Positions 1 to 61,844 of a DNA stretch of 61,915 nucleotides are shown here, piece by piece (the first letter of the stretch is position 1; every line of letters begins with the position of its first letter). The position numbers and the translations under genes are program-made. The notes below the pieces were generated by a model, which saw nothing but the letters and a program-made list of their open reading frames with translations, did not search any database and was not told the DNA's origin. Source of the DNA: Pelotomaculum sp. PtaU1.Bin035 (GTDB lineage: Bacteria > Bacillota > Desulfotomaculia > Desulfotomaculales > Pelotomaculaceae); NCBI GenBank assembly GCA_002067965.1, contig MVRN01000084.1:1-61915 (forward strand), read 5' to 3'.

Positions 1-613
1 CATCTGAACAATTGGCCGGAGCCACCCTGGCAGCGACCGGTACTGGACCCGCAGCAGTGTTTACTGCTGCCAGGTGAAGTTTATAACCGTAAAACATTTC
101 ACTTTCCCCGGTAGAGGCGGTTCGGTGTCCAAAGGAAGCACCCATTGTGTTTTCCCCGGAAGGTTTTTCATGGGCCGGTATATCGGTGCTGTCAATGACC
201 ACTTGACCGGTGGAGCCGGTTAAAGAAAGGATTTCCGCCGACAGTTTTTCACAAATATTATTCAGTTCCTCCTGGAGTTGAGGATCGGTTATTTTGGCCT
301 CGAACCGAGAGAAAGTGCTTTCCGAAGGGACTCTTTTCGATAATTTAAAACCACACCAGTATACCAATTGTGGTGAATATGATAGGCAGGCCACCAGGGA
401 CTTAGTAGTAGTAAGACCTAACAATTTCTTCAAAACCAGTGCCCGGAAAATTGCTGTTTTCTCGGCACCTCTGCGGCCACAACCCTTATATTGAAACTGT
501 TTTTCAACTGAACTACAGTCAATCTGGGAAAGGATCTGGTAAATTTTGTCCTCTGGATTAAAGTTTTCCGCAAAAATTTCAAAGGAAAAAAGCACGCCAT
601 CTAGAACATACAT
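1..613 (-). CDS. Transposase, DDE type, partial (runs off left edge)
   Basis: This is the N-terminal part (about 204 residues) of a transposase read on the minus strand; the C-terminus lies outside the window. The ATG at 613 follows a GAGGTG ribosome binding site at 625-630. The first 120 residues look like the helical N-terminal region of IS5/IS1182-like transposases (for example SFEIFAENFNPEDKIYQIL). The motif VVIDSTDIPAHEKP at about residues 138-151 supplies the first catalytic Asp (D141) of a DDE triad. The remaining acidic residues cannot be seen. The family is inferred from this pattern only. The element is probably multicopy, but that cannot be tested here. Confidence 0.8.
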   Translation of the reverse strand, partial: MYVLDGVLFSFEIFAENFNPEDKIYQILSQIDCSSVEKQFQYKGCGRRGAEKTAIFRALVLKKLLGLTTTKSLVACLSYSPQLVYWCGFKLSKRVPSESTFSRFEAKITDPQLQEELNNICEKLSAEILSLTGSTGQVVIDSTDIPAHEKPSGENTMGASFGHRTASTGESEMFYGYKLHLAAVNTAAGPVPVAARVAPANCSD

Positions 614-619
614 AACTGG

Positions 620-687
620 GGTTTCACCTCGCTTGTGTTTGTTTTGTTGTAGCAAACTAACATTTCTACAAGCTAACAGGTGAAACC
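620..687. repeat. Inverted repeat upstream of the left-edge transposase
   Basis: GGTTTCACCT at 620-629 is exactly repeated in inverted orientation as AGGTGAAACC at 678-687. Between them TTGTAG (647-652) and CTACAA (666-671) form a second inner pair. The outer arm overlaps the ribosome binding site of the transposase, so a transcript folding this way would hide it. It may be the terminal region of the insertion sequence or a translation-limiting hairpin. From 690 to 910 I see only AT-rich DNA with no gene. Confidence 0.45.
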
Positions 688-55804: not shown

Positions 55805-55880
55805 AGGGGAGTAGCTCAATTGGTAGAGCATCGGTCTCCAAAACCGAGGGTTGCGGGTTCAAGCCCTGTCTCCCCTGCCA
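55805..55880 (+). tRNA. tRNA-Trp (anticodon CCA)
   Basis: A complete 76-base cloverleaf. Acceptor AGGGGAG pairs with CTCCCCT, the D-arm is GCTCAATTGGTAGAGC, and the anticodon arm TCGGT-CTCCAAA-ACCGA places CCA at 34-36. The T-arm has GCGGG-TTCAAGC-CCTGT, then G and an encoded CCA. It has its own promoter and terminator. Confidence 0.97.
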
Positions 55881-56163: not shown

Positions 56164-57057
56164 TTATAGATATTCTAAGATGTCTATATAGCTATTTTGT
56201 TTATCAATATATCTTCGTAATATCTCCCTTAATTTTTCTATTATTTCTCGAAATTGCTCTATTGCTTCACCTGTCGTTTTTATGATTTCATCTATTTTAT
56301 TTTCCTGATCCGGTAATACAATTTTTTTAACAGAATTTGGAATCATATAACAAGAGCCATTAGATATATCATCTTCCAATGGTAATTCAGGGAGATAATG
56401 TAAATGACTATCTAAAGTTTCATTATAATGTAAATTATCTAAGATATTATTATGACGTTCACGATTCAAGTGAAATAAATCAAAGAGTATATCAAAAGGT
56501 TTTGTCTTATTATATTCGTAATATGATATTGTTGTATTTTCTAGCTCAGCTGTTGACTTAATACCATTAAGCAATACACTATAGTTTGGAATATATATAA
56601 TCCTTTTTATGCCAATAAGTGTTTTACTGTCATTTTCTGCATACAAATGTTCATTTTCTAAACTACAAAAACCACAATAGGCATTATTTTTCATAATAGT
56701 TTTCCATATTCTAAATACATTACATTTTGTATCCAATATTCTAAAGATATCTTTAGATAAATCAAGTTCTTCAAGTATTATCATTTCTTGCACATCACTA
56801 TTGAGCAATAAAAGAGAGGTATATATATTTTTTAACATGGATTCGCAATCAGTTGAGTATTTAGTGGAGTAATTTGAGCATTTCCACTTCTGAAGAAATT
56901 CAAAAAAATTGCATAAGTAAATATATACTCTGTTTATGGATATAAAAAATTGAACATATTTCTTTAAATAAATACTTTTTTTAGATCTAAGTTTAGAAAT
57001 TTTATCAAAAACTCTTAATCCAAAATCCCCCAGGAACTTAACGAACATTTCAATCAT
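56164..57057 (-). CDS. Hypothetical protein in AT-rich island, 297 aa
   Basis: A 297-residue protein of unusually AT-rich coding sequence (many Ile, Lys, Asn, Tyr). The first 60 residues are basic and hydrophobic. The middle includes CGFCSLENEHLYAEND, and the C-terminal 45 residues form a likely coiled coil (IDEIIKTTGEAIEQFREIIE). No catalytic motif is recognised. The ATG at 57057 has AGGAG about 12 bases upstream. It lies between tRNA-Trp and a broken TIR-domain gene on the same strand, so it could be a partner of the TIR protein or an independent accessory gene. Confidence 0.6.
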   Translation of the reverse strand: MIEMFVKFLGDFGLRVFDKISKLRSKKSIYLKKYVQFFISINRVYIYLCNFFEFLQKWKCSNYSTKYSTDCESMLKNIYTSLLLLNSDVQEMIILEELDLSKDIFRILDTKCNVFRIWKTIMKNNAYCGFCSLENEHLYAENDSKTLIGIKRIIYIPNYSVLLNGIKSTAELENTTISYYEYNKTKPFDILFDLFHLNRERHNNILDNLHYNETLDSHLHYLPELPLEDDISNGSCYMIPNSVKKIVLPDQENKIDEIIKTTGEAIEQFREIIEKLREILRRYIDKQNSYIDILEYL

Positions 57058-57092
57058 AAATCATCACTTCTCCTAAAATATAAATTCTACAA

Positions 57093-57373
57093 TTAAATAT
57101 TAATACTTTTCATGTTTTTCTTCCCATTATCGGACGGTAGACATACCAGTCCCATTACTTCCATGATGATCTCTCCAATAGAAAAAAAATAAAAATACCC
57201 AAATGCCCACCCCACCACAGCGCCAGCCGTCACCTGCGACGCTTCCCCCTTTCGTCCGTGGTGGCCTGGAATTGTTTTTGGTTCATCATGTGTTGATGCC
57301 GCCAATATTTCAGTCGGCTGCGTAACCCTACCTCATTACCATCACCACCGAGAAAACCATAAAAATTTACAAA
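57093..57373 (-). other. Less AT-rich patch with gene remnant-like open frames
   Basis: Inside the AT-rich island this stretch is markedly richer in G and C. One minus-strand frame reads GNEVGLRSRLKYWRHQHM and ends at TGA near 57240. Another minus-strand frame, open over 57093-57305, gives 70 residues starting at a GTG-like codon. Neither is a convincing gene. The patch looks like a leftover piece of a mobile element or a gene end, but I cannot name it. Confidence 0.35.
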
Positions 57374-58245
57374 CTACTTTCTATTCACCAAAGAAAGAAA
57401 ATGCATAGTTCCAATGCTTCTAATCTTGGTTAGTATTACCGCAGTTTCTGTAAGCATATCTCTAAAGTCACCTAACTTTTTAAAAATTGAGTTTTCGCCA
57501 AATAAACTCTTCGCAAGGTTTCTTTCATCAATTTTTATTAGTATTTCCATAATTAACATAAGATTTTTTTGTATTTTAACAATATCATCAAGATGAGGAA
57601 GATTCAAATTTAAAAATAATGCTATATTAGAAATTATCCCTAATCCCTTGGAATAATTATCAATAAACTTTTGCATTGCAGAAGCAGATCCAATAACTGA
57701 TCTTACTCCATTAGCACCCCACACAATACCATGTAAAAAGGCATCTATAAAATCAGATAACCTCCAAATATAAAGTTCTAAATTTTCGATAAGTTGGAAG
57801 TTATGTATTATGAAAGTTGTAATACCTGATTCAATTACCTCATATTGTATTCCAATACCATCCAGTAAATCACCCATTCCTTTATAGAAACTTTCGCTAT
57901 ATTCCCAATCCCTAAAATCTGCATATTTGATATGAGCGATACTATTTGGAAGTTCAATATTGTCAATAAGAACAGGACATATTTTGTATCCAATTTTAGA
58001 CATTGCTCTGATTTTAGCTATGCTTAATTCTTCCCTTACCCAACGAGAATCTATTGAGTTAGAAGATATTACATATATGAATGCAGTCGTTTTATAAATA
58101 CCCTGTTCAATTGATTCCGGAATATTGTCACCAACTTTTATATCCTTTTCATCAAAATAAGTATCAACTCCTGAAAGTATTAAGGATCATGAAGACGCCT
58201 TACAAAATTTTTATCTTTTTTTGAATGTGAAAGAAATACTCTCAT
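57374..58245 (-). pseudogene. TIR-domain protein gene with a one-base frameshift
   Basis: The ATG at 58245 starts MRVFLSHSKKDKNFVRRLHD, then the frame hits TAA at 58180. One frame over, the protein continues as SLILSGVDTYFDEKDIKVGD and on to the stop at 57374. A single T missing near 58185 explains this, giving 290 residues when restored. The first 150 residues are a bacterial TIR domain: FLSHS, FDEKDIKVGD, the catalytic Glu region DSRWVREEL (about 67-74) and ICPVLIDNIELP. The remaining 140 residues are helical and unfamiliar. TIR domains of this kind cleave NAD+ in phage defence systems. It is either a real pseudogene or a sequencing error in one base. Confidence 0.85.
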
Positions 58246-58330: not shown

Positions 58331-58345
58331 TTCTCAACTTTCTCA
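58331..58345. repeat. Left terminal inverted repeat of the IS4-type element
   Basis: TTCTCAACTTTCTCA, the exact reverse complement of the repeat at 61830-61844. Confidence 0.85.
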
Positions 58346-58750
58346 GGACGAAAGTTGAAGTCGTCCCTTTAAAAATGCTGGCAGACAGGAAATGAACTCA
58401 TTGATCATGTCCTGTAAAGCACCATCAGATATTGTAAGATGTTTCCTTAAGGTGTTTTTCAGCATTGTTAATACCAGCTGGAATGCTTCCGCGAAACTTA
58501 TATCCTTAAGCTCGTCACAGCAATAATAAAATAAATCACCAAGAGTCCTTGGGTCTTTGTTTTCCCGGTTTTCTAAAGCAAGCATGATATAGCGGCAGAA
58601 AACGATAGAGGTATGGGCCACCATGGAATCATACGATCTCCCTTGGAATTCCTTGGCCAGATTCAAAAAGGATTTAGTGGTTTTAAAGAAGACTTGTCGG
58701 GTAAAGGACTGGCGCGGTGGATTTATCCTCGTTTCCAGCCCCTCCCCAAA

Positions 58751-58783
58751 GAACCGTGCATGAAGTTTTCCCTCACACGGCTC
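58751..58783 (-). ncRNA. Group II intron domain V
   Basis: On the minus strand GAGCCGTGTGAGG, a GAAA tetraloop region and a complementary arm ending CACGGTTC form the 33-base catalytic hairpin with the AGC triad at its base. Domain VI and the 3' splice site follow within 55 bases. Confidence 0.85.
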
Positions 58784-58840
58784 ACCCAACGGATTCTTGT
58801 CAAGGTTTATGATTCCTATTCTTGCTGGCCGACTTTCGCA

Positions 58841-60145
58841 TTATCTAGAGGTGCCCAGAGGTTGCAGATATTTAATTTTGTAATCCCAATACAGCCCCAG
58901 AACATCATAGATAAATTGGCTACTCCATCGTTTCCAGCCGAAACCAGGACCTCTTTTACGGGTGCGTTTTGCCAATAGGCGGCGTATTCGCTGCTCAACG
59001 TAGTCCCTGACTAAAGAGAAGGCTTTACTGGAGTGCCCAACCCGATAGAAGTTGACCCATCCGGCGAGAATCTGGTTTACTCCATGAATAATCTCTTTTG
59101 TGTTCTTATGGAGATTATTACTAATTACCTCTCTGACTCTTCGTCTGATATTGATCAGGGCCTTTTTCTTAGGTGTCATTAGCACGAATTGCTTACCATT
59201 CCTTGCCACGGCTTTCCTAAAATCAAAGCCGAGGTAGCCAAATGATTCGCCTTTATCCATGTATGCAATTTTGGTCTTTTCTTGGTTTAGCGATACTTGC
59301 AGTCGGCTTAGCTCTTCGGCCAGCCGTCGTTTTGCCCGTTCCACTATCCATTCTTTGGATGGATGAGGATTAATTAATATGACAATGTCATCAGCCCACC
59401 GGTGATAGTTAATTTCATCGTATCCTTTTTCTTGTGTTTGTAGGCGGGCTCTCTCAAACATCCAATCTATCCTGGTTAGATACAGGTTGCTCAAAAGCGG
59501 AGACAACGGGCCGCCCTGAGGTACGCCTTTCTTCCCAGCCGCCTTCAAAATGAGTTTTAGTAACCTCATAATGTCGTCATCCTGGAATCTTTTTGCTACC
59601 TGTTCAAGCAAGGTGTGATGTCGAATATTATCAAAATAAGCGCTCAGATCTACATCGATGGTGACTGTCATTCCCCTTAGAATGCTGCGTCTAACTTGTG
59701 CCAGCGCCAGGTGTGGGTTCTTTTGTGGCCGATACCCGTAGTTGTTTGGACAGAAGTCTGCCTCAAACACTGCCTCCAGGATGAGCTTGAGGGCACCCTG
59801 TACAACACGGTCTTTTATTGTCGGAATGCCCAATATCCCGACTTTGCCGTTGTCCTTGGGTATTTCGCACCGACGGTTTTTGGTGGGGCGGTAGGTTTTG
59901 GTTTGAAGTTCTCTCTGAATTTCAGTCAAGAAACTTCTTCTACCCATTTGTTCGATGTCGTCGAAGGTAATCCCGTCGATTCCCGGTGCACCCTTGTTCT
60001 TTCTGGCAGTGAGATAGGCAGTCTCCAAGGTTTCAAATTTGCATACGTGAGCATACATTCCCCAAAAGCGGTGCTGCTTTTCAGATTTCGCCTTGACATA
60101 TATCTTCCTTCTCAAGTCTTGCAAATTAACGGCAGGTTTTATCAA
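58841..60145 (-). CDS. ltrA: Group II intron reverse transcriptase/maturase
   Basis: 434 residues. Reverse transcriptase blocks 0-7 include NKGAPGIDGITFDDIE, the RPTKNRRCEIPK segment, RPQKNPHLAL, IDVDLSAYFDNI, GVPQGGPLSPLLSNLYL and the active site YHRWADDIV (Trp before ADD instead of the usual Tyr). The maturase X domain has ILAGWVNFYRVG and the C-terminal GPGFGWKRW. No HNH endonuclease domain is seen. The TTG at 60145 has AAAGGAGG upstream within the intron RNA. It helps splicing and copies the intron into DNA for retrohoming. All catalytic aspartates are present, so the protein looks intact. Confidence 0.93.
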   Translation of the reverse strand: MIKPAVNLQDLRRKIYVKAKSEKQHRFWGMYAHVCKFETLETAYLTARKNKGAPGIDGITFDDIEQMGRRSFLTEIQRELQTKTYRPTKNRRCEIPKDNGKVGILGIPTIKDRVVQGALKLILEAVFEADFCPNNYGYRPQKNPHLALAQVRRSILRGMTVTIDVDLSAYFDNIRHHTLLEQVAKRFQDDDIMRLLKLILKAAGKKGVPQGGPLSPLLSNLYLTRIDWMFERARLQTQEKGYDEINYHRWADDIVILINPHPSKEWIVERAKRRLAEELSRLQVSLNQEKTKIAYMDKGESFGYLGFDFRKAVARNGKQFVLMTPKKKALINIRRRVREVISNNLHKNTKEIIHGVNQILAGWVNFYRVGHSSKAFSLVRDYVEQRIRRLLAKRTRKRGPGFGWKRWSSQFIYDVLGLYWDYKIKYLQPLGTSR

Positions 60146-61829
60146 GCCCGCCTTACCTCCTTTATTGAAAGAAGAGTACCTGTTGGTTTGGATCCTTCCC
60201 TCTCACCAGGTTATGTTGTCCTGGCGATACGAGCGGTACTACAACCCAATCCGCCACCCTCTCACTTTTCGGCCACCTTCCCGTTGCGGTTATATGGCCT
60301 ACCTTTCGCAAGGGATTTCTCCCAGGAGTGAGGAGGGCTTCTCCAGTTGCTGTCGTGCCCTTTTCATCATGTCGCCGCTGATACTCCGCCAATGGGTGAA
60401 GAGCCATACGGTCAGTCTGTTCTCTTCGACCTTCTGCCTTCGCCTGACATAGACCGGCTCGGCCACTGGGCTTGCGTGTAACGAGGCTACATCTACGTTC
60501 CTGTGAAGTACGACCTGATGAACTGCTCATTTCGCTTAACGAAACTTTGTCAATAGGCTTCACGGTTTCGGTTTCCTTCAACCGTGCCATTCAAGCTGCG
60601 AGGCTCTGACCTTTTACCTCGACCGGACTTCCACCGGCTGGGTCACGACACCCTTTCCTGGACACGCCGATGTCCCAGCGTTTTCCGTAAATCCGGATGA
60701 TTTCTTCATCGGTCAACTCTAAATCAGTTGAAAGTAATGCCAACCATTTTTTAGCCTTGTTTCGATCCCGGACAAATAAGATCCGTGCCGATACCGGATT
60801 ACCCTTTGAATCTATGCCAATTTTAACGATGGCATTTGCTAAGATCTTAGCTCTGCCGGGTTTTTTGAGAAGTTCTTTATAGAGGGTGTCGAGAGTCATC
60901 TTTTCCCCTTTGTAGTTGTATAAAACTTTTTTCGTTGACTTTAGCATGCATACCACATGGAGGCGATGTTCACGAACCCTACAGATAATGGACGGAAAGG
61001 AAAACCAGCTATCGAAAAGAAGATACCTTGCATGGACACCATAATTCTGGGCTTGGCGTAACAGGTCAAACATTACTTCAGTAGACTTTTTGATACTTTC
61101 CATCCTTCTTTTGTAGCCAATAGTACGCTTATCAATCCGTGGATCAATTCCACAAAGCCGGTTGCGTTGATTCTCGGAACTGAGCAGTGAAAAGGCAATC
61201 GGCAAAAAAGTGTTACCGTCTGACCAGCCAAGGGTAGGCATCCGAAATCCACGGACATACTTGTGTTCAACATGATCATGCACCCTGGCTAGCAATTCAA
61301 CGGCCTTGCTTCTGTTGCGGCTGTATAGGGAGTCATCGAGAATCAGAACATTTTTCCTGTTGTGATGATTCAATGGTTTCCTTAATGATAGTTGAACTCA
61401 GGGCTAGTAAAAGCTTTCGCCAATTGTACCTGAAAGAATTCAGAAAACGATAGATCGCATCTTTCTCTGGCATTTCGAGGTCACTTTTAGTTTGCAATGT
61501 ACGATAAAGGTTCTTGCCGTTAAAGACAAGTAGAAAAATGAACTTGAAAAGGTGAAGACAGCTAAATCCCTTTTCTTTATGAAAGTTGGCAGAGCGTAAT
61601 ATTTTTCCAATTTCGTGCGTCGATAAAATTTATCCACGCGAGAGTTAAACTGTTTTTCAATTTCATATTGGTTTGGTAAAATAGATTTCATAAAAGACAT
61701 CCTCTCTTCTTGGTTTGATGGTTTGTAGTTAACTCTATTTTACCAAGAAAAGGGTGTCTTTTGTGTTGTTTATGCAAATAAAAGTCAAAAAAATCTAGTC
61801 ATATCAAGACTTGAGAGCCATTATCCATT

Positions 61830-61844
61830 TGAGAAAGTTGAGAA
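61830..61844. repeat. Right terminal inverted repeat of the IS4-type element
   Basis: TGAGAAAGTTGAGAA, the exact reverse complement of the repeat at 58331-58345. Confidence 0.85.

What the first reader, a model, noticed from the sequence alone, without database searches (positions are those of the whole stretch)
56164..58245. TIR-domain locus with a frameshift next to tRNA-Trp
A TIR protein with an unfamiliar helical C-terminal domain lies beside a 297-residue orphan gene in strongly AT-rich DNA that starts at a tRNA gene. This is typical of small defence islands. The reading frame breaks by one base at about 58185, which may reflect inactivation of a costly suicide effector or an assembly error. 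The C-terminal domain and the neighbour are not families I recognise.
Basis: partly seen in the sequence, partly recalled or inferred. Interest (0 to 1): 0.62.

Follow-up and report, generated by a model that had tools for sequence, protein, structure and literature searches.

The report
Broken TIR gene beside orphan gene
A horizontally acquired, very AT-rich stretch beside a tRNA gene holds a bacterial TIR enzyme gene that is cut short by a one-base frameshift, plus a neighbouring gene with no detectable relatives; it is probably a decaying anti-phage suicide gene of a known kind whose sensor part is unfamiliar, and not a demonstrable new defence system.

Summary
On the minus strand, 58245-57374, lies a TIR gene (TIR_2, E 9.7e-18) whose first 20 codons are in one frame and the other 270 in another; the zero frame stops at 58180-58182. 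Aligned with other TIR proteins, one residue is missing at the break, so a one-base deletion explains it. The first internal start (58003) lies past the conserved Trp-Glu active-site motif. The C-terminal ~155 residues and the 297-residue gene 57057-56164 are open frames beyond chance but match nothing: Pfam, PHROGs, PDB, phages, plasmids, IMG/VR, GTDB contigs and about 500 related genomes gave only chance-level scores. The pair has 26-30% GC against about 47% for the contig and is absent beside the same tRNA-Trp in six relatives. Upstream lies an insertion sequence whose transposase is itself frameshifted and split by a group II intron, so the segment looks decayed. No integrase, att repeat or second defence gene was found, so 'defence island' is not shown. 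Best reading: remnant of a TIR NADase abortive-infection effector with an unfamiliar C-terminal sensor part; whether the neighbour belongs to it is undecided. New member of a known kind, modest interest.

The parts
57374..58245 (-). [quoted passage not shown]
   Evidence: ATG 58245 preceded by AGGGG at 7 nt
58180..58187 (-). frame break and premature TAA (58182-58180); no slippery heptamer and no homopolymer
57845..58186 (-). rest of the TIR domain in the shifted frame (P0002 residues 1 to about 114), with the W-x-x-x-E motif at 58042-58028
57377..57844 (-). C-terminal part of the TIR protein, no family; no segment hydrophobic enough for a membrane helix
56164..57057 (-). 297-residue orphan gene, AGGAG ribosome-binding-site-like sequence upstream, intact
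57058..57373 (.). 316-nt gap between the two genes, 41% GC; 45 nt of it (57194-57238) recur at 87% identity in a stretch of contig C88 without a recognised gene
55805..55880 (+). tRNA-Trp (CCA), left border of the AT-rich segment; its 3' end is not repeated elsewhere in the genome
58333..61842 (-). degraded insertion sequence with terminal inverted repeats, DDE_5 transposase frameshifted near its N-terminus and split by a group II intron

Best explanation
This is the remnant of a horizontally acquired TIR effector gene of the abortive-infection type. When intact it most likely worked like other single TIR NADases: the C-terminal part senses a phage component or oligomerises, TIR domains are brought together, their composite active site cleaves NAD+ and the infected cell stops growing. 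In the sequence as given, a one-base deletion 20 codons after the start ends the protein and removes the activity; the first internal start lies past the catalytic motif. The orphan gene lies in the same AT-rich segment, and a role with the TIR protein is possible but not shown. Shown here: TIR domain, conserved active-site residues, frame break, foreign composition, absence at the same locus in relatives, decay of the adjoining IS. Inferred: NADase activity, phage defence, the sensor role of the C-terminal part, and that the break is real and not an assembly error.
For: TIR_2 hit 9.7e-18. Alignment to AbTIR structures 7uxr/7uwg/8g83 puts W49/E53 of the open frame on their W-x-x-x-E motif; both are invariant. 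One residue missing at the break. Both frames too long for chance. GC 26-30% against 44-50% in neighbouring genes. Six relatives with the same ddl-tRNA-Trp order carry secF, ylmC-sigG or other genes on the far side, not this pair. Frame break also in the adjoining transposase. Known TIR effectors with helical or auxiliary phage-sensing parts: SpbK (PMC12847820), Swarozyc (PMC13174449).
Against: No second defence gene, integrase or att repeat. No homologue of the C-terminal part, so its sensor role and helical fold are untested; single-sequence AlphaFold models are unusable (mean pLDDT 35 and 38). The break could be an assembly error, in which case the gene is intact and functional.
Confidence: 0.6

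Rival explanations
1. The frame break is a sequencing or assembly error in a draft genome; the TIR gene is intact and working, alone or with the orphan.
For: Draft of 128 contigs, 98% complete, 3.3% contamination; contig ends in mobile DNA on both sides; the 270 codons after the break are free of stops with normal position-specific GC.
Against: The break is not at a homopolymer; the long chromosomal ORFs of the contig look intact, while frame breaks cluster in the mobile segment.
Confidence: 0.3
2. The TIR protein and the orphan form a two-gene system, for example a TIR signal producer plus an effector or sensor encoded by the orphan, as in Thoeris.
For: Same strand, TIR first, both AT-rich, both with ribosome-binding-site-like sequences.
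Against: 316-nt gap of different composition; no co-occurrence could be shown because neither part has detected homologues; the orphan has no match to any ThsA or other defence family.
Confidence: 0.2
3. Programmed frameshifting makes the full-length protein.
For: A single frame change near the start of an otherwise open gene.
Against: No slippery heptamer or homopolymer at GAT-CCT-TAA, and no comparable signal known to me in TIR genes; the adjoining IS shows ordinary decay.
Confidence: 0.03

Closest known systems
SpbK (Bacillus subtilis TIR NADase)
   Same: Single TIR protein of about 270-290 residues with a non-TIR part; in SpbK that part is a 4-helix bundle that binds the phage portal and drives TIR assembly (PMC12847820)
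   Different: Domain order reversed: SpbK has the helical domain first and TIR last; here TIR is first. No sequence similarity detected outside TIR.
Swarozyc (DUF4062 TIR-like NADases with a C-terminal auxiliary domain)
   Same: N-terminal TIR-like NADase, C-terminal auxiliary phage-sensing part (PMC13174449)
   Different: This protein is a TIR_2 member with no DUF4062 hit; its C-terminal part has no detected relative.
Cat1 (CRISPR-associated TIR)
   Same: N-terminal TIR, C-terminal regulatory domain, about 260 residues (PMC12162218; weak TIR-only hit)
   Different: No CARF domain found in the C-terminal part.
Thoeris ThsB
   Same: TIR domain next to a second gene; weak ThsB hits over the TIR part
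   Different: No ThsA or other known Thoeris effector nearby; ThsB_TIR score 18.6 below its cut-off 21.2.

Membership tests
TIR domain proteins (PF13676 TIR_2) | Score above the family cut-off | tested here: met
   65.3 bits against cut-off 28, residues 5-99 of P0002
TIR NADases | Conserved active-site Trp-x-x-x-Glu motif | tested here: met
   W49 and E53 of P0002 align with the motif of AbTIR and are invariant among four TIR proteins
TIR NADases | NAD+ cleavage | not testable with these tools
   needs purified protein
TIR NADases | Intact reading frame | tested here: not met
   stop at 58180-58182 after 21 codons; assembly error not excluded
Thoeris | ThsB above cut-off plus a ThsA-type effector | tested here: not met
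   ThsB_TIR below cut-off; no PADLOC hit for the neighbour
SpbK | N-terminal helical bundle, C-terminal TIR | tested here: not met
   TIR is N-terminal
Swarozyc | DUF4062 domain | tested here: not met
   no DUF4062 hit up to E 1
Cat1 | C-terminal CARF domain and type III CRISPR context | tested here: inconclusive
   no Pfam hit in the C-terminal part up to E 10; CRISPR context not examined beyond this contig
Defence island / tRNA-integrated island | Several defence genes; integrase; att repeat of the tRNA 3' end | tested here: not met
   one TIR gene only, no integrase recognised among contig ORFs by eye, no repeat of the tRNA end in the genome; the contig ends 6 kb away, so the far side is unseen

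The most novel reading that the evidence does not exclude
The locus belongs to an undescribed TIR defence system in which a new helical C-terminal sensor domain works with a new 297-residue partner protein.
Probability: 0.12. Interest if true: 0.5.

Novelty: new member of a known kind. Interest (0 to 1): 0.22.

Why it matters
TIR effectors with many different sensor parts are a well-known kind; this one adds an unfamiliar C-terminal part and an orphan neighbour, but in a single, probably broken copy. Its value lies in being a lead: an intact homologue with the same C-terminal part would let its trigger and the role of the neighbour be tested.

Tried and rejected
Structure prediction of both proteins from single sequences: pLDDT 35 and 38, unusable, so no fold search was run. 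Weak hits of the C-terminal part and orphan in phylum genomes (E 0.004-0.009) were examined; three were read and rejected, as they fall on a PhoU-like gene, a SppA-like gene and a stretch with several stops, and the fourth (L012) has six stops. TIR proteins of similar size in other genomes (L015-L018, L022) have different C-terminal parts and neighbours. Similarity between the TIR C-terminal part and the orphan: none. Transmembrane C-terminus: rejected, best 19-residue hydropathy 1.3. tRNA-targeted integration with att repeat: no repeat. Internal promoter or terminator: promoter count at chance level, no terminator. Phages and IMG/VR: nothing.

Full report
What is there. The window is one whole contig (C84) of a 2.54-Mb draft genome in 128 contigs. 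Right of tRNA-Trp (55805-55880) GC falls from about 47% to 26-33%. The segment holds two genes on the minus strand: a TIR gene (58245-57374) and, 316 nt downstream of it, a 297-residue orphan (57057-56164). Both have a ribosome-binding-site-like sequence (AGGGG before ATG 58245; AGGAG before the orphan) and open frames longer than chance allows in such AT-rich DNA: none of 2000 Markov copies reached 270 codons.

The frame break. From ATG 58245 the frame reads MRVFLSHSKKDKNFVRRLHD, then Pro and a stop at 58180-58182. The TIR domain continues in the other frame for 270 codons. In an alignment with three TIR proteins from other genomes one residue is missing at the junction, which a one-base deletion explains. 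There is no homopolymer or slippery heptamer. The first internal start, ATG 58003, lies after the W-x-x-x-E motif, so a restarted protein would be expected to be inactive.

Real or artefact. Reads were not available. Two facts favour a real mutation: the site is not an obvious error-prone one, and frame breaks cluster in the mobile segment. The insertion sequence next to the TIR gene (inverted repeats 58333-58345 and 61830-61842) has a transposase that, compared with an intact 453-residue relative, changes frame near 61.37 kb and is split by a group II intron between residues 338 and 341, whereas the long chromosomal ORFs of the contig look complete (judged by length, from general knowledge). 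I put a real mutation at about 65%.

What the TIR protein is. TIR_2 at 9.7e-18 over residues 5-99 of the open frame. Solved AbTIR structures align so that W49 and E53 fall on their active-site motif; that this Glu is the catalytic residue in AbTIR is established knowledge, not tested here. The TIR domain ends near residue 114; the last ~155 residues have no match in Pfam, PHROGs or PDB at useful scores, and the NCBIfam and PADLOC hits of the whole protein lie in the TIR part. They hold no membrane helix; 'helical' rests on sequence character and an unusable model.

Relatives. No homologue of the C-terminal part or of the orphan was found in 100 relatives (orphan; whole TIR protein), 113 genomes of the order, 398 genomes of the phylum, phages, plasmids (TIR-part hits only), IMG/VR or GTDB contigs. 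The IMG/VR and GTDB scans with one protein find close relatives only. Hits at E 0.004-0.009 were chance. Eight phylum genomes have TIR proteins matched by this one; those read have other C-terminal parts and other neighbours.

Context. Six genomes of the same family share ddl beside tRNA-Trp, but carry secF, ylmC-sigG or other genes on the far side (names given from the translations by eye). The pair is thus most simply a lineage-specific insertion. The tRNA 3' end is not repeated in the genome and no integrase was recognised, so integration into the tRNA gene is not shown; the contig ends 6 kb on, in mobile DNA.

How it most likely worked. Like SpbK (helical domain binds the phage portal, TIR domains assemble, NAD+ is cleaved; PMC12847820) and Swarozyc (N-terminal TIR-like NADase, C-terminal auxiliary domain on the portal; PMC13174449). 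The present protein is not a member of either: domain order or domain family differs. 'Works like' is inferred from architecture alone. The orphan may be a partner, or may merely share the segment.

Verdict. Observation confirmed; interpretation partly supported. A probable pseudogene of a known kind with an unfamiliar C-terminal part, beside an orphan gene. Interest 0.22.

Noticed in passing
window 58333-61842: Insertion sequence with a DDE_5 transposase that is frameshifted near its N-terminus and interrupted by a group II intron (Rfam matches at 60503-60640 and 58696-58785, reverse transcriptase 58841-60145).
   Followed up: yes
window 57194-57238; L002 1501-1545: A GC-rich 45-nt piece between the two genes recurs at 87% identity in contig C88, in a stretch without a recognised gene near small Gly/Cys-rich YjcZ-like genes; its nature is unknown. 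No copy in 24 other genomes of the family.
   Followed up: partly
window 1-655: The left end of the contig looks like a fragment of another transposase gene, so the contig seems to be bounded by mobile DNA on both sides.
   Followed up: no
L023-L025, L027-L029: The far side of the ddl-tRNA-Trp junction differs between genera of the family (secF, ylmC-sigG, others), so this spot is a rearrangement point.
   Followed up: partly
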